From Chryseobacterium luteum (lineage in GTDB: Bacteria; Bacteroidota; Bacteroidia; Flavobacteriales; Weeksellaceae): a stretch of 64,000 nt of DNA. Position 1 is the stretch's first letter. The number at the start of each line of letters is the position of its first letter. Positions 55,189 to 62,304 of the stretch are shown here, one piece after another. Location of the stretch: NCBI RefSeq assembly GCF_000737785.1, contig NZ_JPRO01000014.1, positions 62,001 through 126,000 of the forward strand. The letters are read 5' to 3'. Position numbers and translations under genes: made by a program. The notes beneath the pieces were generated by a model. That model was given only the letters and a program-made list of their open reading frames with translations, ran no database searches and was not told the origin of the DNA.

Positions 55189-56430
55189 ATGCAAGAACAG
55201 TCTCTGTCTTCAAAACTGAAGTACATCTTTTCGATCCCCGTAATCATTTCGGCCCTGGGCTATTTTGTAGATATTTATGATCTGCTTTTATTCGGTATTG
55301 TAAGAATCCCAAGCTTAAAAGCTTTAGGCCTGAATCCTGATTCTGACGGAACCTTTATCCTGAACTGCCAGATGGTAGGCCTTCTTATCGGCGGGGTTTT
55401 CTGGGGGATTTTTGGAGACAAAAAGGGTAGGCTTTCCGTACTTTTCGGGTCCATTTTGGTATATTCCTTAGCTAATATTGCCTGTGGTTTTCTTCCCTAT
55501 TTTCCGAAAGAGCATCTGGTGTACCAATATGCGGGTTTAAGATTCATTGCAGGAATAGGACTGGCCGGGGAGCTTGGAGCCGGAATTACCCTGGTTTCTG
55601 AAAGCCTGCCGAAGAATCTAAGGGCAATCGGAACCTCTGTAGTAGCAGGCTTCGGACTGATGGGGGCCGTAGTGGCCCAGCTTACGGTAGAACTCGCCGG
55701 CGGCTGGAATATCTCCTACATCATCGGCGGAATTATGGGGATCATGCTGTTGATTCTCAGGGTAAGCGTATCAGAATCCGGTATTTATAAGAATATAGAG
55801 CATAAAAGCGTTTCCAAAGGAAATTTCCTTTCCTTTTTTACCAGTAAGGAACGCTTGACCCGGTATCTCAAATGCATTGCTGTAGGATTGCCTACATGGT
55901 ATTGCATAGGGATTCTGGCGGTTCTGGCTAACCAATTTGCCCCTGAATTGGGGATTAAGGATCTGAATCCGGGAAAAGCAATTATGTGGGCTTATATAGG
56001 GATCTCCGCCGGTGATCTGATGAGCGGTTTTATTTCCCATGCATTGAAATCCCGTAAAATGGCTATTTTCTATATGCTGCTCTTCACCATAGTGGGTGTG
56101 GCAATAATGCTGTTTGGAAATACCAATACAGAGACAAAATACTATATGTTCTGTGTCTGGCTGGGCTTGGGAACTGGCTATTGGGCAATGTTTGTAACAC
56201 TTGCGGCAGAACAGTTTGGTACGAATATCAGAAATACGGCAACAACCACCGTTCCCAATATGGTAAGAGGTTTGGTGCCTGTGATGATCTTAGCCTTTGA
56301 TCTTTTAAAAACTCATTTCACGGTAATCATAAGTGCGGCTGTCGTGGGAGTTGTTGTATTCGGTCTGGCCTTTTATTCATCGCTGACCATTTCAGAAACC
56401 CATAATAAAGACCTGGGGTTTACCGAGTAA
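55189..56430 (+). CDS. MFS transporter (metabolite:proton symporter-like)
   Basis: 413 residues with 12 predicted membrane segments. The conserved MFS loop 2-3 motif is GIFGDKKGRLSVLFG (about residues 80-94). The N-terminal half also has DIYDLLLFGIVRIPSL in TM1, as in the metabolite:H+ symporter or sugar-phosphate group, and AGIGLAGELGAGITLVSESLP. Substrate unknown. It is the last ordinary gene before the peptide cluster and appears to stand alone. Confidence 0.88.
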   Translation: MQEQSLSSKLKYIFSIPVIISALGYFVDIYDLLLFGIVRIPSLKALGLNPDSDGTFILNCQMVGLLIGGVFWGIFGDKKGRLSVLFGSILVYSLANIACGFLPYFPKEHLVYQYAGLRFIAGIGLAGELGAGITLVSESLPKNLRAIGTSVVAGFGLMGAVVAQLTVELAGGWNISYIIGGIMGIMLLILRVSVSESGIYKNIEHKSVSKGNFLSFFTSKERLTRYLKCIAVGLPTWYCIGILAVLANQFAPELGIKDLNPGKAIMWAYIGISAGDLMSGFISHALKSRKMAIFYMLLFTIVGVAIMLFGNTNTETKYYMFCVWLGLGTGYWAMFVTLAAEQFGTNIRNTATTTVPNMVRGLVPVMILAFDLLKTHFTVIISAAVVGVVVFGLAFYSSLTISETHNKDLGFTE

Positions 56431-56494: not shown

Positions 56495-56529
56495 TTGTGC
56501 TTCAAATAATCATTAATTGTTTACTTTTG
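56495..56529 (+). promoter_or_regulatory. Promoter of the first cysteine-rich peptide gene
   Basis: TTG at 56495-56497, 24-base spacer, TACTTTTG at 56522-56529. The sequence after it (GAAAGTAA, TTGTTTAAT, ATCAAA) closely follows the region upstream of the second peptide, showing a duplicated regulatory segment. Confidence 0.55.
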
Positions 56530-56575
56530 AAAGTAAAGGAATTTAATTCTATTGTTTAATTAAAATCAAAACATC

Positions 56576-56761
56576 ATGTCACAGGAAATTTTTAAAAAAG
56601 CAAAAAAGTTAAAAAAGGAAGATCTTAAAAACATTATAGGCGGAGTAAGCGGGGTAGTCACCCCGGATCTTTCAAAATGTGGCTGTAGCTGTACAGGAGC
56701 AGTGACAGGACCGTCATATTGTGTAAAGTATAAAAAGTGTCTCCAGGTAATTACCTGTTAA
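56576..56761 (+). CDS. Six-cysteine double-glycine peptide precursor 1 (bacteriocin-like)
   Basis: 61 residues. The leader KKAKKLKKEDLKNIIGG (Gly22-Gly23) is a double-glycine leader of the type used by peptide exporters with C39 peptidases and by Bacteroidota natural-product precursors. The core has six cysteines at 35, 37, 39, 49, 55 and 61, in the pattern C-x-C-x-C-x9-C-x5-C-x5-C, and ends on Cys61. The second peptide at 57089 has the same spacing. Function unproven: a bacteriocin-like or signalling peptide is likely. Confidence 0.75.
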   Translation: MSQEIFKKAKKLKKEDLKNIIGGVSGVVTPDLSKCGCSCTGAVTGPSYCVKYKKCLQVITC

Positions 56762-56780
56762 TAGAAACATTTTAGTGAGT

Positions 56781-56808
56781 AAAACCTTTCGGATAATTGA
56801 AAGGTTTT
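56781..56808 (+). terminator. Terminator after peptide gene 1
   Basis: AAAACCTTTC-GGATAATT-GAAAGGTTTT followed by ATTGTTT. Confidence 0.75.
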
Positions 56809-57008
56809 ATTGTTTAGTAAAGCTTAAGAATCCCGGAACACTTCAACATCCTTTAAAACAATTCTGTTCCCATTCTTTTCAGCTGTAGGGCAAGGTTAAA
56901 AGAACAGGATAATTTAATCGTTTAATAAATATTTCCGTTTTAATCCGCTTTATTAAGTTAATAATACTAATGAAATCAGGGCTTTATTTAATTTTATATT
57001 AAATTATG

Positions 57009-57038
57009 TTGTGAATAATTAATATTTGTTTAACTTTG
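57009..57038 (+). promoter_or_regulatory. Promoter of the second cysteine-rich peptide gene
   Basis: TTG at 57009-57011, 19-base spacer, TAACTTTG at 57031-57038. Related to the promoter at 56495-56529. Confidence 0.6.
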
Positions 57039-57088
57039 GAAAGTAACTAAGCTATACTGTTTAATCTCAAACCAAATCATTTAAGACT

Positions 57089-57268
57089 ATGAAAAATGCC
57101 AAGAAATTAAGAAAAGCAGATCTGAAAAACATTATCGGAGGAATCAGCGGACCACAAGATTTATCCAAGTGCGGATGCAGCTGCTCAGGATCCGTTACAG
57201 GTCCGTGGTACTGTGTACAGTATATTGCCTGTCCTCAGGTATATACCTGTGATCAGTCTGCAGTTTAA
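57089..57268 (+). CDS. Six-cysteine double-glycine peptide precursor 2 (bacteriocin-like)
   Basis: 59 residues, paralog of the peptide at 56576. The leader is MKNAKKLRKADLKNIIGG (Gly17-Gly18). The core begins ISGPQDLSKCGCSCSGS and has cysteines at 28, 30, 32, 42, 48 and 54 with identical spacing to paralog 1, then a short tail DQSAV. VTGP and the YC following it are also conserved. It has its own promoter and terminator. Whether the neighbouring maturases act on it is not known. Confidence 0.75.
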   Translation: MKNAKKLRKADLKNIIGGISGPQDLSKCGCSCSGSVTGPWYCVQYIACPQVYTCDQSAV

Positions 57269-57317
57269 GACGATTTCAGTCAGAAAATAATAAACATTTC
57301 CACATTTAATACGCAAA

Positions 57318-57345
57318 AGCCTTTTGGACCTTCCAAAAGGTTTTT
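57318..57345 (+). terminator. Terminator after peptide gene 2
   Basis: CCTTTTGGA-CCT-TCCAAAAGG followed by TTTTT. Confidence 0.75.
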
Positions 57346-57462
57346 GTCTTTTAATAAAGTTGAAAAAAGGAAATCCGTTTGTCTTTCTTTGCGATCCAAG
57401 AAAGGCAGATTATTATGAAACAGATAAGCTATTTAACATAATATAATTATTTATTTATCTCT

Positions 57463-57492: not shown

Positions 57493-57546
57493 TGATAAGC
57501 GGATTCCGAAAAGCTAACAGAGTAGGAGAAAAATTAATGTATTACT

Positions 57547-57735
57547 ATGAAAAAATTAGAAAACCTGAAAGGGAAGAAATTAGGCAACATGAAAAGTATT
57601 ATTGCTGGAAAAAAATCATTAGACCTAGGCTTCGCTGGTCCATGTGGAGGAACTGGTACAGACAGTGATCCTCACGTATTAGAAACACTTACACTGATCA
57701 AAGGTGGAGGTGGTACTAATGATGGATGTGACTAG
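57547..57735 (+). CDS. gwsA: Grasp-with-spasm modified peptide precursor
   Basis: 62 residues. The leader MKKLENLKGKKLGNMKSIIAG is recognised by position and by its Lys/Leu pattern. The core holds Thr/Asp-rich segments, GPCGGTGTDSDPHV and LIKGGGGTNDGCD, that offer hydroxyl and carboxyl side chains for ester (graspetide-type) or amide links made by an ATP-grasp enzyme, plus two cysteines. It directly precedes the ATP-grasp and SPASM genes, separated by a hairpin. The exact linkages cannot be read from sequence. Confidence 0.75.
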   Translation: MKKLENLKGKKLGNMKSIIAGKKSLDLGFAGPCGGTGTDSDPHVLETLTLIKGGGGTNDGCD

Positions 57736-57760
57736 TCACTTGATTTTTTACAAAAAATTA

Positions 57761-57787
57761 AAGACTCTTTATATTATAAAGAGTCTT
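57761..57787 (+). terminator. Attenuating hairpin between precursor and maturase genes
   Basis: AAGACTCTTTATA-T-TATAAAGAGTCTT, 13-base perfect arms, but with only a weak T-tract afterwards. It probably lets a fraction of transcripts continue so that precursor mRNA exceeds maturase mRNA. Confidence 0.6.
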
Positions 57788-57814
57788 CCTTTATCTATTA
57801 ATTCATAAAAAAAT

Positions 57815-58780
57815 ATGATTCTAATTTTATCAACTCCCAATGATGACGATACAAATCTTGTGATGGAGCATTTACATCTTTTGGGTGAAAAGTGTATAAG
57901 AATAAACGATCTGGACTTATTTAACGGAAATACAAAGATGCATTATGAGCTGTCGCCGGAGCCTAGGCTTTTTGTGGAGAATATTTTTTTTGGAAGAATA
58001 GATCTCTCGGATATTCAATGTGTATGGTATAGAAAATTTGGGTTCTTTGATAAGTTTAAAAAAAAAATCAGAGGAGAAACCAATATAGAGATGCTGGAAT
58101 ATTTAAAATTAGAATATACCACTACACTGGAACTCTTTTTTGATTTTTTAAAGGACAAAAAATGGCTTAACAATTATTTAAGCGTTAAAAAATTAAATAA
58201 AATAAGCACTCTCATTGCTTCTCAAAAAATAGGATTAACTATTCCAAAAACCAATATAACCAATACTGCTGATTCATTAGACCTGAACGAATCATATATT
58301 ACCAAATCTATAAAAGACGGAACCGTAATTGACGTGGGAGAAAAAACTTTCTTTTTTCTAACAAAGGAAGTTAATCCCAGGACAATGATTGGGTACAACC
58401 ATTTTTTTCCAAGTTTGTTTCAAGAGAAAATAGACAAAGAATACGAACTCAGAATTTTCCATTTGAATGGAAAAAACTATCCTATGGCCATTTTTTCTCA
58501 AAGAGATACCCAAACGGGCGTAGATTACAGACATTACAATTACAGTAAACCCAACAGAATGATTCCTTATTCTCTCCCCGGAGAACTTGATGAAAAAATA
58601 TGCCGTCTTATGAAAACCCTGGAACTCGATACCGGCTCATTGGATATCATAAAAGGTAAAGATGGGGAATATTATTTTTTGGAAATAAATCCTTCAGGCC
58701 AATTCAGGATGACATCAATGCCTTGCAATTATAATCTTCATTATGAGGTAGCCCAGTGTTTAAAAAAAATGAATACATGA
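57815..58780 (+). CDS. gwsG: Grasp-with-spasm ATP-grasp peptide maturase
   Basis: 321-residue ATP-grasp ligase of the graspetide/GwsG group. The N-terminal domain contains MILILSTPNDDDTNLVMEHL, the middle domain FQEKIDKEYELRIFHLNG, and the C-terminal Mg2+/ATP site is YFLEINPSGQFRMTSM (Glu-x-Asn-Pro). Such enzymes activate Asp/Glu carboxylates of a precursor and couple them to Thr/Ser or Lys side chains. It follows the gwsA precursor. Its TGA overlaps the ATG of the next small gene (ATGA), so the maturases are translationally coupled. Confidence 0.88.
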   Translation: MILILSTPNDDDTNLVMEHLHLLGEKCIRINDLDLFNGNTKMHYELSPEPRLFVENIFFGRIDLSDIQCVWYRKFGFFDKFKKKIRGETNIEMLEYLKLEYTTTLELFFDFLKDKKWLNNYLSVKKLNKISTLIASQKIGLTIPKTNITNTADSLDLNESYITKSIKDGTVIDVGEKTFFFLTKEVNPRTMIGYNHFFPSLFQEKIDKEYELRIFHLNGKNYPMAIFSQRDTQTGVDYRHYNYSKPNRMIPYSLPGELDEKICRLMKTLELDTGSLDIIKGKDGEYYFLEINPSGQFRMTSMPCNYNLHYEVAQCLKKMNT

Positions 58781-58977
58781 AAAAAACATTACTTAAGGAA
58801 ATTGGATATGAAAAAAAGAAAGAGCTGCTTCCTGTTATTTTCTCCCATACAACTCCAATGGACATAAAAAAAATAAAAAGAGACCGTCCTTTCAGAATGG
58901 TTGACACTTCTATTCATCAGTCAGAAATCTATTGCCTAAGAATATACAAAGATGGAATTAACATATCTACGGAATAA
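58777..58977 (+). CDS. Small unrecognised ORF inside the grasp-with-spasm cluster
   Basis: 66 residues starting MKKTLLKEIGYEKKKELLPV, basic, with no signal peptide. Its ATG overlaps the gwsG stop (ATGA) and its own end overlaps the gwsS start by 26 bases, so it is likely to be translated. No family is recognised. It could be a small accessory protein, such as an adaptor or leader-binding helper. Confidence 0.55.
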   Translation: MKKTLLKEIGYEKKKELLPVIFSHTTPMDIKKIKRDRPFRMVDTSIHQSEIYCLRIYKDGINISTE

Positions 58978-59950
58978 CAACGACAAATATATTCATGTGT
59001 TTTCTTGCTGTATACCTGTCAGAGGACATGAAAGAGGCGCTATATACGATCTTCAGAGAGAGGAAATTGAATTGGTGCCTAATACCATGATAGACTTTTT
59101 GGAACACATTAAAAACAGAAAAGTAAGCTCTGTCCTGGAAGAATTTGAATCAGATACAATGGCTAAAAAGTATCTTGATTTTTTAGAAAAAAATGAATTT
59201 GTATTTTATTCCAATACTGTTTCTTTTCCTGAATTATCTGCCAGGAGTATCAATGAAGATACTTCCGTAATACAGTTTATGACTATCATGTTGTCGGAAT
59301 TTATTGATGATAATTTAGATGCCGTTATAAAAAATATTAATGAACTGGGGGTGAAAAGGCTGCACGTCCATATGAGTAGCCAGGATTGCATGAAGGAAAT
59401 TCATAAATTCCTGAATTTGTTAGAATATTCCAGGGTAACTAATATGTCTTTTTCAATTCCTTATCAAAAAATTGATAAAAAACTATACAACAACAATCGC
59501 TTAAAGACTTTGTATCTGTTTAATTCTCCTAAAGAAAAAGTAGAAACCAATAATGAAGTGACCAGTGTTTTTATTATGGTGAATGATGCCAGGATGTTTA
59601 TACCTAAATTTAATATCAATACCGTAGACGTTAATTCTACGGCTTATAATATTGCCGTAAATTATAATCTGTCACTATATAAGACCGTATTTGTGGATGA
59701 ACATGGGGAAATTAAATTTAATGTTTCAGATAAGACAGGCTATGGTAATATCACGGATTCAATAGAGGAAATAAAAACCAGGACATTCCCGGAACTTTCC
59801 ACACTTTGGAATATTAAAAAGACCGATATTGCTCCCTGTAATATTTGCGAGTTTAGATTCTGCTGTACTGTGACCCATATTCCTTTTAAAAAGGATGACG
59901 GTTATGCAGTGAACTGTAATTATAATCCATACAATGCCGAATTAAATTAA
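58952..59950 (+). CDS. gwsS: Grasp-with-spasm SPASM-domain peptide maturase
   Basis: 332-residue protein with a C-terminal SPASM-like cysteine cluster: Cys296, Cys299, Cys304, Cys305 and Cys322 (DIAPCNICEFRFCC and NCNYNPYN). The radical-SAM CxxxCxxC motif is absent; the N-terminal half has only an isolated Cys19-Cys20 pair. It therefore keeps the auxiliary Fe-S-binding module of peptide-modifying enzymes without the radical core, as expected for grasp-with-spasm systems. It probably works together with the ATP-grasp enzyme on GwsA. Confidence 0.85.
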   Translation: MELTYLRNNNDKYIHVFSCCIPVRGHERGAIYDLQREEIELVPNTMIDFLEHIKNRKVSSVLEEFESDTMAKKYLDFLEKNEFVFYSNTVSFPELSARSINEDTSVIQFMTIMLSEFIDDNLDAVIKNINELGVKRLHVHMSSQDCMKEIHKFLNLLEYSRVTNMSFSIPYQKIDKKLYNNNRLKTLYLFNSPKEKVETNNEVTSVFIMVNDARMFIPKFNINTVDVNSTAYNIAVNYNLSLYKTVFVDEHGEIKFNVSDKTGYGNITDSIEEIKTRTFPELSTLWNIKKTDIAPCNICEFRFCCTVTHIPFKKDDGYAVNCNYNPYNAELN

Positions 59951-59977
59951 AAGAAATGAGCAAAAACTGAGGAGTAT

Positions 59978-60832
59978 ATGGTTGAAAGTATAGCCAATAT
60001 TTTAAAATATCTTGAGAAAAAAAATATTTATTTAGACGGAAAAGATTTTTCGTTCCAGATTAATTCTCATCCGGCATTCCCAAGTCTGCTGTCCATAGTG
60101 AGTGCTCTGAATATTAACCGTGTTTGTAACTATGTGCTGGAAATAGAGGATTCCGAAATAGACGAGCTTCCCGATGATTTTATGACTTTTGTAGCACTTA
60201 CAGGAAATGAACAGGAACTTATGTATGTTGAAAAGAAAAATGAATGCTACCTGGTTAATGGAAAATATAAAATAAGTAAAGACGACCTGCTTTCAAAGTG
60301 GAATAAGATTGTCGTTATAGTTGACGAAACACAGTCGGATCTTAAAAAGAAAGGCATTAGTACCTATCTGTTGCCTTTTGTGGGAATTTCAATACTAATT
60401 ATATTGATTGGCTTGTATTACTATATTCATTTAAATTCTTTCATGTATCTGCTTCTGTCATTGTGCGGTTTTTCCCTGTCTGTTCTTTCATTAAAAAAAG
60501 TATTTGGAATTGAAAGTTCGATAGTAAGTAAGGTATGTTCAGGTACCTATAAAGACTGTTCGTTTTCTGAAACGAAAAACACAGATTTTATCTCAAACTT
60601 TGGAGATTACAGCCTGGTCTACTTTTTTACCAATATGATAAGCATTCTGTTTCTTTCAAATAATCAGAACCATGATGTTTTTGTTAGCATACAGAAATTA
60701 TTACTGATCATTATTCTCCCTGTGATGGCTTATTCCCTTTTTTATCAGCTGTTTAAAATGAAGAAAGTCTGCCCCTTATGTATAGGAATTATAATTATTT
60801 TGATTTTGCAGACTTATATTTTGATGATGTAA
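59978..60832 (+). CDS. Fusion of a degenerate C39-like domain and a VKOR disulfide-forming domain
   Basis: 284 residues. Residues 1-120 resemble a C39 peptidase-like domain (INSHPAFPSLLSIVSALNI) lacking the nucleophile Cys. Residues 130-284 are four to five membrane segments of the vitamin K epoxide reductase family with both redox pairs: Cys187-x6-Cys194 in the loop and Cys265-Pro-Leu-Cys268. VKOR proteins pass electrons from thioredoxin-like proteins to quinones. The cluster context suggests an exporter-linked oxidase for a modified peptide, with the C39-like part perhaps binding its leader. No ABC exporter is seen. Confidence 0.8.
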   Translation: MVESIANILKYLEKKNIYLDGKDFSFQINSHPAFPSLLSIVSALNINRVCNYVLEIEDSEIDELPDDFMTFVALTGNEQELMYVEKKNECYLVNGKYKISKDDLLSKWNKIVVIVDETQSDLKKKGISTYLLPFVGISILIILIGLYYYIHLNSFMYLLLSLCGFSLSVLSLKKVFGIESSIVSKVCSGTYKDCSFSETKNTDFISNFGDYSLVYFFTNMISILFLSNNQNHDVFVSIQKLLLIIILPVMAYSLFYQLFKMKKVCPLCIGIIIILILQTYILMM

Positions 60833-60833
60833 T

Positions 60834-61490
60834 ATGAATATAGAATCTTTTATTCCGGTAGTTTTATATGGTCTTATTTATTTGCTCATCTTTATTCTGT
60901 GGCTGTACATCAAGAGATTTCTAATCCGGAGTGAGAAGAACAAAAACCAGCTGATAAGAAAAACCAGAGTGGTCAGGAATCATGATGTGTTTATGAATAC
61001 CTTACAGAAGCAGGAAAAGGCAGACCTTCCTGTACCTGTATTCGTCCTGGGAAATAAGGATGCAGATCTTGAACTGACGATATTGACAAGTCTATACTGT
61101 GAGATGTGTAAAGAGATGAGTGAGATTATTGATAAAATAATATTTGCCTATGAAGACCAGATAAAAATAAATATTTTTTTTAAACCCCAGAATGCAGAGG
61201 AAAAAAATCATCCTTTGTATCTGCTTCATGCCATTTTTTTAATTCGGGGAGAAAAAGAGTTTTTACAGGCATTCAATTTTTGGTTTAAAAATAAGAACCT
61301 TATACCATGGCAGACTGCCGATTACAGTACCGAAGAAAATAAAAATTCCTTTACATCTTCAAACGATTGGTTTGCCCGGAATGGAATAATCTCCACACCT
61401 TCAGTTTTTATTGATAAGTATGTCTATCCCTACGAATTTGAAAAAGAAGATTTATACTTTTATATAGAACAAATTATAGAAAACAAATAA
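60834..61490 (+). CDS. Membrane-anchored thioredoxin-fold protein (DsbA-like)
   Basis: 218 residues: one N-terminal membrane helix (IPVVLYGLIYLLIFILWLYI), then a thioredoxin-like domain with Cys89-x-x-Cys92 (LTSLYCEMCKEM), the ALL-alpha insert, and the cis-Pro loop ISTPSVFIDKY near residue 195. It starts one base after the VKOR gene stop, so the two probably form an oxidising pair, with VKOR re-oxidising this protein. The client is likely to be a cluster peptide. Confidence 0.82.
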   Translation: MNIESFIPVVLYGLIYLLIFILWLYIKRFLIRSEKNKNQLIRKTRVVRNHDVFMNTLQKQEKADLPVPVFVLGNKDADLELTILTSLYCEMCKEMSEIIDKIIFAYEDQIKINIFFKPQNAEEKNHPLYLLHAIFLIRGEKEFLQAFNFWFKNKNLIPWQTADYSTEENKNSFTSSNDWFARNGIISTPSVFIDKYVYPYEFEKEDLYFYIEQIIENK

Positions 61491-61497
61491 AAAAGAT

Positions 61498-62304
61498 ATG
61501 CACCGTAGAATATTAATACTAAATCTGCTTTTCTTTATCGTTCAAAACCTTTATTCTCAGAATATGAGAATAAATTATGATATGACCTATAGAGAAGATT
61601 CATTAAGTGAAGAATCTGTTACCAAGAAAATGGTACTATTGATTCACGGAGAAGAATCAAAATTTTATTCGGAAAAACAATATGATATAGACTCTCTTAG
61701 AAATAATGGATTCAAAGGTTTTGCAGTAGGCGATAATAGCTTTATGGTGATCAGGAAACCTCAAAACGTAGTTTCAAAATACTATTTTATATTTAGAGAT
61801 GCTTATAAAATAACAGAATCCGTAAATCTAAACTGGACAATAGAAAAAGAGATCGTAAAAAAGTACAATTATACCTGCCAGAGAGCAACACTCAGTTACA
61901 AAGGCAGAAGTTGGGAAGCCTGGTTTACCCAAGACCTGCCGATTCAGGAAGGACCTTATATTTTTAAAGGCCTGCCTGGGTTAATTGTTTATATGAAAGA
62001 TAAAACCAATTCATATGAATTTTCTTTTTCAGGAATTAAGAAACAATATAATCCTTTAGACTTTGAAAATATGCAGCCCAAGCCCATGGAGACTTCAAAA
62101 AATAAATTGGATAAAGTATTTTTAGACTATTTTAATGATCCTTATAGAGAAATGAAATCCGGAAATATAAAAGCAAAATTCAAGGACGAACGTGGTAATG
62201 ATATCGAACCCGATTTCAGGAAAATGACGAAAGAAACGCAGGACTATTTAATTAAAAAAAATAATCCAATAGAGCTTACAGATAGCATTCACTATCCAAA
62301 ATAA
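61498..62304 (+). CDS. GLPGLI family protein
   Basis: 268-residue secreted protein of the Bacteroidota GLPGLI family. It has a signal peptide (MHRRILILNLLFFIVQNLYSQ) and the family motif in EGPYIFKGLPGLIVYMKDKTNSYEF (about residues 155-180), after YTCQRATLSYKGRSWEAWFTQDLPI. It starts seven bases after the thioredoxin-fold gene and ends the cluster. GLPGLI proteins commonly accompany peptide-maturation or TonB-type export loci; the molecular role is unknown. Confidence 0.85.
   Translation: MHRRILILNLLFFIVQNLYSQNMRINYDMTYREDSLSEESVTKKMVLLIHGEESKFYSEKQYDIDSLRNNGFKGFAVGDNSFMVIRKPQNVVSKYYFIFRDAYKITESVNLNWTIEKEIVKKYNYTCQRATLSYKGRSWEAWFTQDLPIQEGPYIFKGLPGLIVYMKDKTNSYEFSFSGIKKQYNPLDFENMQPKPMETSKNKLDKVFLDYFNDPYREMKSGNIKAKFKDERGNDIEPDFRKMTKETQDYLIKKNNPIELTDSIHYPK

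What the first reader, a model, noticed from the sequence alone, without database searches (positions are those of the whole stretch)
56495..57268. Duplicated six-cysteine double-glycine peptides, one missed by a 60-residue cut-off
Seen: peptides of 61 and 59 residues with the same leader end (LKNIIGG) and identical C-x-C-x-C-x9-C-x5-C-x5-C cores. Both have TAnnTTTG promoters with related downstream sequence and their own terminators. The second is shorter than 60 residues and easily overlooked. Inferred: a recent gene-plus-promoter duplication of a secreted, disulfide-rich bacteriocin-like or signal peptide.
Basis: partly seen in the sequence, partly recalled or inferred. Interest (0 to 1): 0.75.

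Follow-up and report, generated by a model that had tools for sequence, protein, structure and literature searches.

The report
Genus-wide six-cysteine secreted peptides
Two tiny genes in a Chryseobacterium genome encode six-cysteine peptides found almost throughout that genus, probably cut, exported and disulfide-locked by one shared export machine that also appears to serve dozens of other small cysteine-rich peptides.

Summary
Two genes (61 and 59 codons) share the leader end LKNIIGG and an identical six-cysteine spacing, and each has its own TAnnTTTG promoter element. Relatives occur in 160 of 173 genomes of the genus and essentially nowhere else in the family (2 weak hits in 147 other genomes). 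Of 112 copies in 80 named loci plus the window, 110 keep the exact spacing; two short paralogues have five cysteines. The locus is syntenic behind rny, usually with an MFS gene between. The duplication is old, not recent: two sub-types recur across the genus. The adjacent grasp-with-spasm cluster is not conserved with the peptides.

Best reading: orphan substrates of an unlinked hub encoding a VKOR-DsbA-like oxidase, a C39 peptidase-ABC exporter and HlyD. In 17 of 20 hub loci sampled it also holds other cysteine-rich double-glycine peptides. The oxidase, the dispersed 'leader_Chryseo' peptides and this family tend to be present or absent together across 173 genomes; on a tree only the oxidase-leader link reaches p about 0.03, and the links involving this family point the same way without reaching 0.05. 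Repertoire peptides almost always have an even cysteine count (71 of 73). Export and disulfides are inferred. The role (conserved factor versus bacteriocin) is open.

The parts
56522..56529 (+). TAnnTTTG promoter element of the first peptide gene (TACTTTTG)
   Evidence: 97 of 109 family copies carry such an element within 160 nt of the ATG
56576..56761 (+). peptide 1 (T-type, 61 aa): leader to GG at residues 22-23, then a 38-residue mature part with six Cys that ends ...QVITC
56780..56810 (+). probable terminator hairpin after peptide 1 (bounds approximate)
   Evidence: fold of 56762-56830, -16.3 kcal/mol; not listed by the consensus scan
57031..57038 (+). TAnnTTTG promoter element of the second peptide gene (TAACTTTG); the 25-base stretch ending here occurs once in the genome at up to 3 mismatches
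57089..57268 (+). peptide 2 (S-type, 59 aa): leader to GG at residues 17-18, then a 41-residue mature part with six Cys and a short tail after ...QVYTC
57313..57347 (+). terminator hairpin after peptide 2

Best explanation
The two genes encode precursors of small secreted peptides. The N-terminal 18-23 residues are a double-glycine leader; a C39 peptidase-ABC exporter cuts after GG and moves the 38-41 residue core out of the cytoplasm, and its six cysteines are oxidised to three disulfides. The machine is not beside the genes. It is most likely the hub at contig C26 of the same genome: a VKOR-DsbA-like oxidase fusion, a C39 exporter and HlyD, with other cysteine-rich double-glycine peptides between them. 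The rny-linked peptides would be highly conserved, almost genus-wide substrates of this hub-and-spoke system. Shown: the genes, their conservation, the synteny, the hub genes, and the joint presence and absence of the parts. Inferred: promoter use, cleavage, export, disulfides, and that this exporter rather than another serves them. Role, a weaker inference: because the core is so conserved in the genus and no immunity gene was seen to travel with it, a conserved secreted factor (signal or envelope/housekeeping peptide) is more likely than a strain-specific toxin.
For: Family in 160 of 173 genus genomes. Exact Cys spacing in 110 of 112 copies. pN/pS 0.16-0.17 in the core. rny upstream in 78 of 80 named loci, the other two (L091, L121) being cut before it. 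Hub gene domains: C39, ABC, HlyD, VKOR, Thioredoxin_4, with a CxxC in both oxidase domains. Oxidase, exporter and HlyD together in 20 of 20 sampled hub loci, chosen among genomes with hits to both oxidase and exporter. Of 173 genomes: peptide and oxidase both present 158, both absent 10, discordant 5; peptide and leader_Chryseo peptides 158, 11, 4; oxidase and leader_Chryseo peptides 159, 11, 3. Independent pairs on an rny tree: oxidase-leader 6 same, 0 opposite, p 0.03; peptide-leader about 4.8 same, 0 opposite, p 0.06; peptide-oxidase 3.5-3.7 same, 0.0 opposite on average, p 0.125-0.25. Even Cys counts in 29 of 31 own-genome and 42 of 42 other-hub mature peptides.
Against: The peptides are not linked to the exporter, and both score under the curated cut-off of the leader model NF047798 (13.4 and 17.9 bits against 23.5). 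G068 carries two copies but no C39 hit and no oxidase; G004 carries a copy and the exporter but no oxidase; G085, G088 and G106 have an oxidase hit but no peptide. A second C39 exporter, beside a radical SAM gene, exists in the genome. Most losses cluster on one side of the rny tree, so Fisher p-values overstate the link, and the peptide's own links do not reach 0.05. Two diverged paralogues have five Cys, which does not fit full pairing. The AlphaFold model is weak (mean pLDDT 68.6, pTM 0.34), and no disulfide pairing could be read.
Confidence: 0.6

Rival explanations
1. The peptides are bacteriocins (microcin or bacteroidetocin-like): exported by the same route but used to kill relatives, with immunity encoded elsewhere or absent.
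For: Double-glycine leader and small cysteine-rich core; NCBI names the related leader class 'bacteriocin-like protein'. Bacteroidetocins of Bacteroides combine a C39 exporter, a thiol oxidoreductase and a GG peptide without an immunity gene (passages of PMC6671954).
Against: The core is highly conserved in a whole genus (mean identity of mature parts 0.75 for T, 0.71 for S, against 0.49 and 0.60 for two hub peptide families picked by eye). Mature charge is near neutral (mean +1.4 for T, -1.6 for S). No candidate immunity gene was seen in the three loci read as ORF lists, and of the window's genes searched in 80 loci those recurring next to the peptides are rny, MFS and ClC.
Confidence: 0.3
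2. A radical-SAM or other RiPP product: the cysteines carry thioether cross-links rather than disulfides.
For: The best NCBIfam hit of peptide 1 is TIGR04149, a radical-SAM target family (22 bits, cut-off 25). A radical SAM/C39 locus exists elsewhere in the genome.
Against: No radical SAM gene was recognised beside the peptides in the window or noted in three other loci listed ORF by ORF without a family search. The radical SAM locus has its own peptide, with a core that lacks cysteine. Even-cysteine parity in the repertoire is what disulfides need and sactipeptides do not.
Confidence: 0.08
3. Substrates of the adjacent grasp-with-spasm cluster (57547-62304), i.e. graspetides.
For: The cluster starts about 280 bases downstream and has its own VKOR-like and thioredoxin-like genes.
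Against: In the 80 named loci (a few with little downstream DNA) no gwsG or gwsS hit follows the peptides; where such hits occur, in L087, L102, L114 and L138, they lie between rny and the MFS gene or the peptide. The cluster has its own precursor candidate at 57547-57735.
Confidence: 0.03
4. Metal-binding (metallothionein-like) secreted peptides that use the CxCxC motif.
For: C-x-C-x-C at the start of the core in every copy seen, although the extraction filter asked for it.
Against: Co-occurrence with a disulfide-forming oxidase argues for oxidised cysteines; no metal-related gene was noted in the three loci read as ORF lists.
Confidence: 0.07

Closest known systems
NCBIfam NF047798 leader_Chryseo, 'bacteriocin-like protein'
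   Same: Same kind of short lysine-rich double-glycine leader in the same genus; 26 members over the cut-off dispersed in this genome.
   Different: Both peptides score under its cut-off. NF047798 models only an 18-residue leader, whereas here the whole core is conserved.
Bacteroidetocins A/B of Bacteroides (PMC6671954, passages seen)
   Same: GG leader, mature part of about 40 residues, paired cysteines, C39 exporter plus thiol oxidoreductase, no immunity gene in the locus.
   Different: Four cysteines and a compact four-gene locus there; here six cysteines, genes unlinked from the exporter, VKOR-DsbA fusion and HlyD in the hub, genus-wide core conservation.
TIGR04149 GG-leader radical SAM targets of Bacteroidetes
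   Same: Weak leader similarity (22 and 17.9 bits).
   Different: Below the cut-off of 25, and no radical SAM partner recognised at the locus.
Class II microcins and Pfam PF10439 Bacteriocin_IIc
   Same: GG leader cut by a C39 ABC exporter with an HlyD partner (recalled for microcins).
   Different: PF10439 scores 14.3 and 14.5 bits against a cut-off of 27.1; no linked exporter, no immunity gene seen.

Membership tests
NF047798 leader_Chryseo | whole-protein score at or above 23.5 bits | tested here: not met
   13.4 and 17.9 bits
TIGR04149 rSAM-modified GG RiPP | score at or above 25 bits | tested here: not met
   22 and 17.9 bits
TIGR04149 rSAM-modified GG RiPP | radical SAM/SPASM maturase in the locus | tested here: not met
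   none recognised among the window's neighbours except the SPASM protein of the non-conserved gws cluster; three other loci were read as ORF lists only
PF10439 Bacteriocin_IIc | score at or above the gathering score 27.1 | tested here: not met
   14.3 and 14.5 bits
Bacteroidetocins | exporter and thiol oxidoreductase in the same locus as the peptide | tested here: not met
   no C39 exporter near the peptides; the genome's two C39 domains lie on contigs C26 and C1, the peptides on C14
Bacteroidetocins | four cysteines in the mature peptide | tested here: not met
   six
C39-exported double-glycine peptides (general kind) | conserved GG leader | tested here: met
   G22 G23 and leader residues A9, L12, L17, I20 invariant in 105 distinct copies
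C39-exported double-glycine peptides (general kind) | C39 peptidase-ABC exporter in the genome | tested here: met
   two C39 domains in this genome, hub copy with HlyD and oxidase; but G068 has the peptides without any C39 hit
C39-exported double-glycine peptides (general kind) | cleavage after GG and export observed | not testable with these tools
   needs mass spectrometry
Graspetides (grasp-with-spasm) | precursor co-occurs with an ATP-grasp ligase gene | tested here: not met
   gwsG hits in 4 of 80 named loci only

The most novel reading that the evidence does not exclude
Chryseobacterium runs a genus-wide hub-and-spoke system in which one conserved oxidase-C39-HlyD machine secretes tens of unlinked three-disulfide mini-proteins per genome, partly controlled by the Rfam DUF805b RNA; the rny-linked six-cysteine family is its near-invariant core member and acts as a genus-level signal rather than a toxin.
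Probability: 0.3. Interest if true: 0.85.

Novelty: new variant of a known kind. Interest (0 to 1): 0.62.

Why it matters
Short cysteine-rich genes are easily missed, and NCBI's family model for those of this genus covers only the leader. A family kept with little change in a genus, tied by presence and absence to a specific oxidising exporter, gives a defined substrate, machine and test organism for secreted disulfide mini-proteins in Bacteroidota, and a way to ask whether such peptides are weapons or signals.

Tried and rejected
Recent duplication: rejected by the tree and by T-type and S-type orthology.

Graspetide role through the neighbouring gws cluster: rejected, not conserved.

Obligate two-peptide pair: not supported; of 80 named loci 22 carry both types (18 TS, 3 ST, 1 SST), 45 only S (40 single, 5 double) and 13 only T (L076 and L089, counted as TS, each have a further five-cysteine copy).

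Structure: AlphaFold2 with 105 sequences gave a weak model. Foldseek against PDB gave one match at E 6.6, meaningless. A profile search of PDB sequences gave none. PHROGs gave only a chance-level hit.

Shared promoter with other repertoire genes: the S-type element occurs once in the genome; of 24 other leader-peptide genes only 3 have TAnnTTTG within 110 nt of the leader match.

DUF692/chryseobasin (PMC10214503, passages): a different precursor with a conserved C-terminal CPACGMG motif; whether DUF692 genes occur in this genome was not searched.

Literature: nine searches of the held open-access library listed no paper that I recognised as describing these peptides or the hub; I saw listings, plus passages of three papers. 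Most subscription papers are not in that library.

Full report
What is there. Two + strand genes, 56576-56761 (61 aa) and 57089-57268 (59 aa), lie between an MFS transporter gene (55189-56430) and a grasp-with-spasm cluster that begins with its own precursor candidate at 57547. Their products share the leader end LKNIIGG and the cysteine spacing C-x-C-x-C-x9-C-x5-C-x5-C. Each has a TAnnTTTG element and a hairpin after the stop, so each is probably its own short transcript; transcription itself was not tested.

Who has it. A profile of 30 copies finds the family in 162 of 320 genomes of the bacterial family: 160 of 173 in the window's genus (at most 20 candidates per genome were scored; one of the 160, G135, only at E 9.3e-5 in a 73% complete genome, and G152 at 1.5e-13) and 2 weak hits (E about 3e-5, not examined further) among 147 genomes of other genera. 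All 80 kept named contigs are Chryseobacterium (which kept the best 80 of 139). In 13 genomes the family is not found. Reading 1.5 kb behind rny shows no such peptide in 12 of them; in G088 that stretch is filled by the MFS gene and says nothing.

How conserved. From the 80 named loci I extracted 108 copies with a filter that asked for the first three Cys and a G-x-[VI]-[TS]-G stretch, and added the two of the window: all 110 have the exact spacing and exactly six cysteines. An unfiltered tblastn recovers these 108 and two further copies, upstream of the normal pair in L076 and L089, which end early and have five cysteines. Positions not asked for by the filter that never vary in the 110 are the last three Cys, P12 and Q23 of the 27-residue core; V9 and T10, where the filter allowed two letters, do not vary either. 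pN/pS is 0.16-0.17 in the core, with synonymous sites near saturation; rny gives 0.05. There are two sub-types: T (peptide 1; CSCTG, ends ...[IM]TC; 36 copies, mean mature charge +1.4) and S (peptide 2...QVYTC or ...YNC plus tail; 74 copies, mean -1.6). On a DNA tree of all 110 the label changes twice (many branches are weak, and the label's own columns are in the tree), so the duplication is old. Arrangements in the 80 loci: S 40, TS 18, T 13, SS 5, ST 3, SST 1.

Where it sits. rny lies upstream of the peptides in 78 of 80 named loci, usually with the MFS gene between; L091 and L121 are cut before rny. In two loci read as ORF lists, a putative exporter that I take for YeiH-like and a LysR-type regulator follow on the other strand (both names recalled, no family search); in a third, without the MFS gene, other genes follow. 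The window's gws cluster is a local feature: no named locus has gwsG or gwsS hits downstream of the peptides. I saw no maturation, export or immunity gene travelling with the peptides, but only the window's own genes were searched in all 80 loci.

The machine elsewhere. The genome has two C39 peptidase domains. One (contig C26, locus L150) is a 730-residue C39-ABC exporter between HlyD and two cysteine-rich double-glycine peptides, next to a 502-residue fusion of VKOR and thioredoxin domains, with a CxxC in both oxidase domains. The other stands with a radical SAM enzyme and a peptide whose core lacks cysteine. Exporter, oxidase fusion and HlyD are found together in 20 of 20 further hub loci, chosen from genomes with hits to both, so this is not a rate for all; 17 of the 20 hold at least one further peptide by my leader pattern, L180, L189 and L190 none. 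The same genome holds 48 hits, 26 over the cut-off, to the leader model NF047798, scattered over many contigs. They encode different, mostly cysteine-rich cores.

Test of the link. Across 173 genomes: oxidase fusion absent in 12 at E 1e-40, leader_Chryseo peptides absent in 13, rny-linked peptide absent in 13. Peptide versus oxidase: 158 both, 10 neither, 2 peptide only (G004, G068), 3 oxidase only (G085, G088, G106). Peptide versus leader peptides: 158 both, 11 neither, 2 peptide only (G004, G137), 2 leader only (G085, G106). Oxidase versus leader peptides: 159 both, 11 neither, 2 oxidase only (G088, G137), 1 leader only (G068). Fisher p is 4e-12, 8e-14 and 1e-14, but genomes are related. The rny tree has 102 rows: the window, 77 named loci (L072, L091 and L121 dropped) and 24 handles that I chose to include all 13 peptide-negative genomes. 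The states of the named rows were inferred (peptide seen; oxidase and leader taken as present, because G004, G068 and G137 are the only peptide-positive genomes lacking one of them), and a few genomes are in twice. G135's peptide state was left out. The peptide changes at least 7 times, the oxidase 9 and the leader peptides 10. Independent pairs on well-supported branches: oxidase-leader 6 same, 0 opposite (p 0.03; 5.8 same the other way round, p 0.03-0.06); peptide-leader 4.8 or 4.7 same, 0 opposite on average (median p 0.06); peptide-oxidase 3.7 or 3.5 same, 0.0 opposite on average (median p 0.125 or 0.25). The exporter itself discriminates less: 168 of 173 have a match at E 1e-200, weaker in several peptide-negative genomes.

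Disulfides. Mature repertoire peptides have an even number of cysteines in 29 of 31 (own genome) and 42 of 42 (other hubs) cases, six being the commonest: 19 and 33 (the scan required at least two cysteines and a leader-like start). This is what paired disulfides predict, though related peptides are not independent draws, and the two five-cysteine copies are exceptions inside the rny-linked family.

Compared with the rest of the repertoire. Mean identity of mature parts is 0.75 (T) and 0.71 (S) in the rny-linked family against 0.49 (10 copies) and 0.60 (7 copies) in two hub families that I picked by eye. The comparison is small and not matched for species.

What it works like. The best-characterised parallel that I found is bacteroidetocin (PMC6671954; passages): GG peptide, paired cysteines, thiol oxidoreductase, C39 exporter, no immunity gene. 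Our peptides differ in having six cysteines, unlinked genes and a highly conserved core. The literature searches listed under Tried and rejected showed no account of this family or of the hub.

Verdict. Observation confirmed; interpretation partly right. I file it as a new variant of a known kind: orphan, genus-wide, six-cysteine double-glycine peptides, most likely substrates of an oxidising C39 hub. Function remains the open question.

Noticed in passing
window 57496-57528, L176-L195: Rfam DUF805b RNA (RF02914, cis-regulatory) stands 18 nt before the gws precursor gene at 57547. In 20 hub loci of other genomes it occurs 20 times in 13 loci, each time 16-25 nt before the ATG of a leader_Chryseo-like peptide gene (20 of 20). 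In this genome it also precedes the peptides at L041, L042 and L065, i.e. 3 of 24 scanned leader-peptide loci above the gathering score. Peptides 1 and 2 lack it. It may be the translational switch of part of this repertoire.
   Followed up: partly
window 57547-62304: Grasp-with-spasm cluster: precursor candidate 57547-57735, GwsG 57815-58780 (TIGR04192, 276 bits), SPASM protein 58952-59950 (TIGR04193, 131 bits, below its cut-off), VKOR-like 59978-60832 (weak), thioredoxin-like 60834-61490, GLPGLI 61498-62304. It sits where two relatives read as ORF lists have other genes.
   Followed up: partly
L087, L102, L114, L138: gws-type genes also sit between rny and the MFS gene or the peptides in other species, so the rny region looks like a recurrent landing site for such clusters.
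   Followed up: no
L150 12205-13284: The hub region of this genome also carries a SPASM maturase of the grasp-with-spasm type (TIGR04193, 417 bits) beside a GLPGLI-like ORF and the VKOR-DsbA fusion, so graspetide and disulfide-peptide systems may share parts.
   Followed up: no
L151 7516-11284: Second C39 exporter with a cyclophane-type radical SAM enzyme and a Ser/Tyr/Gln-rich peptide whose core after GG has no cysteine.
   Followed up: no
L076 9595-9738, L089 9607-9744: Two further, diverged copies upstream of the normal pair, with a CxCxC start but only five cysteines and an early end: decaying or specialised paralogues.
   Followed up: no
window 57039-57088 and homologues: The 5' leader of the S-type genes (AACTAAACTATATTGTTTAATC-like, after the promoter) is conserved across species; possible post-transcriptional control.
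   Followed up: no
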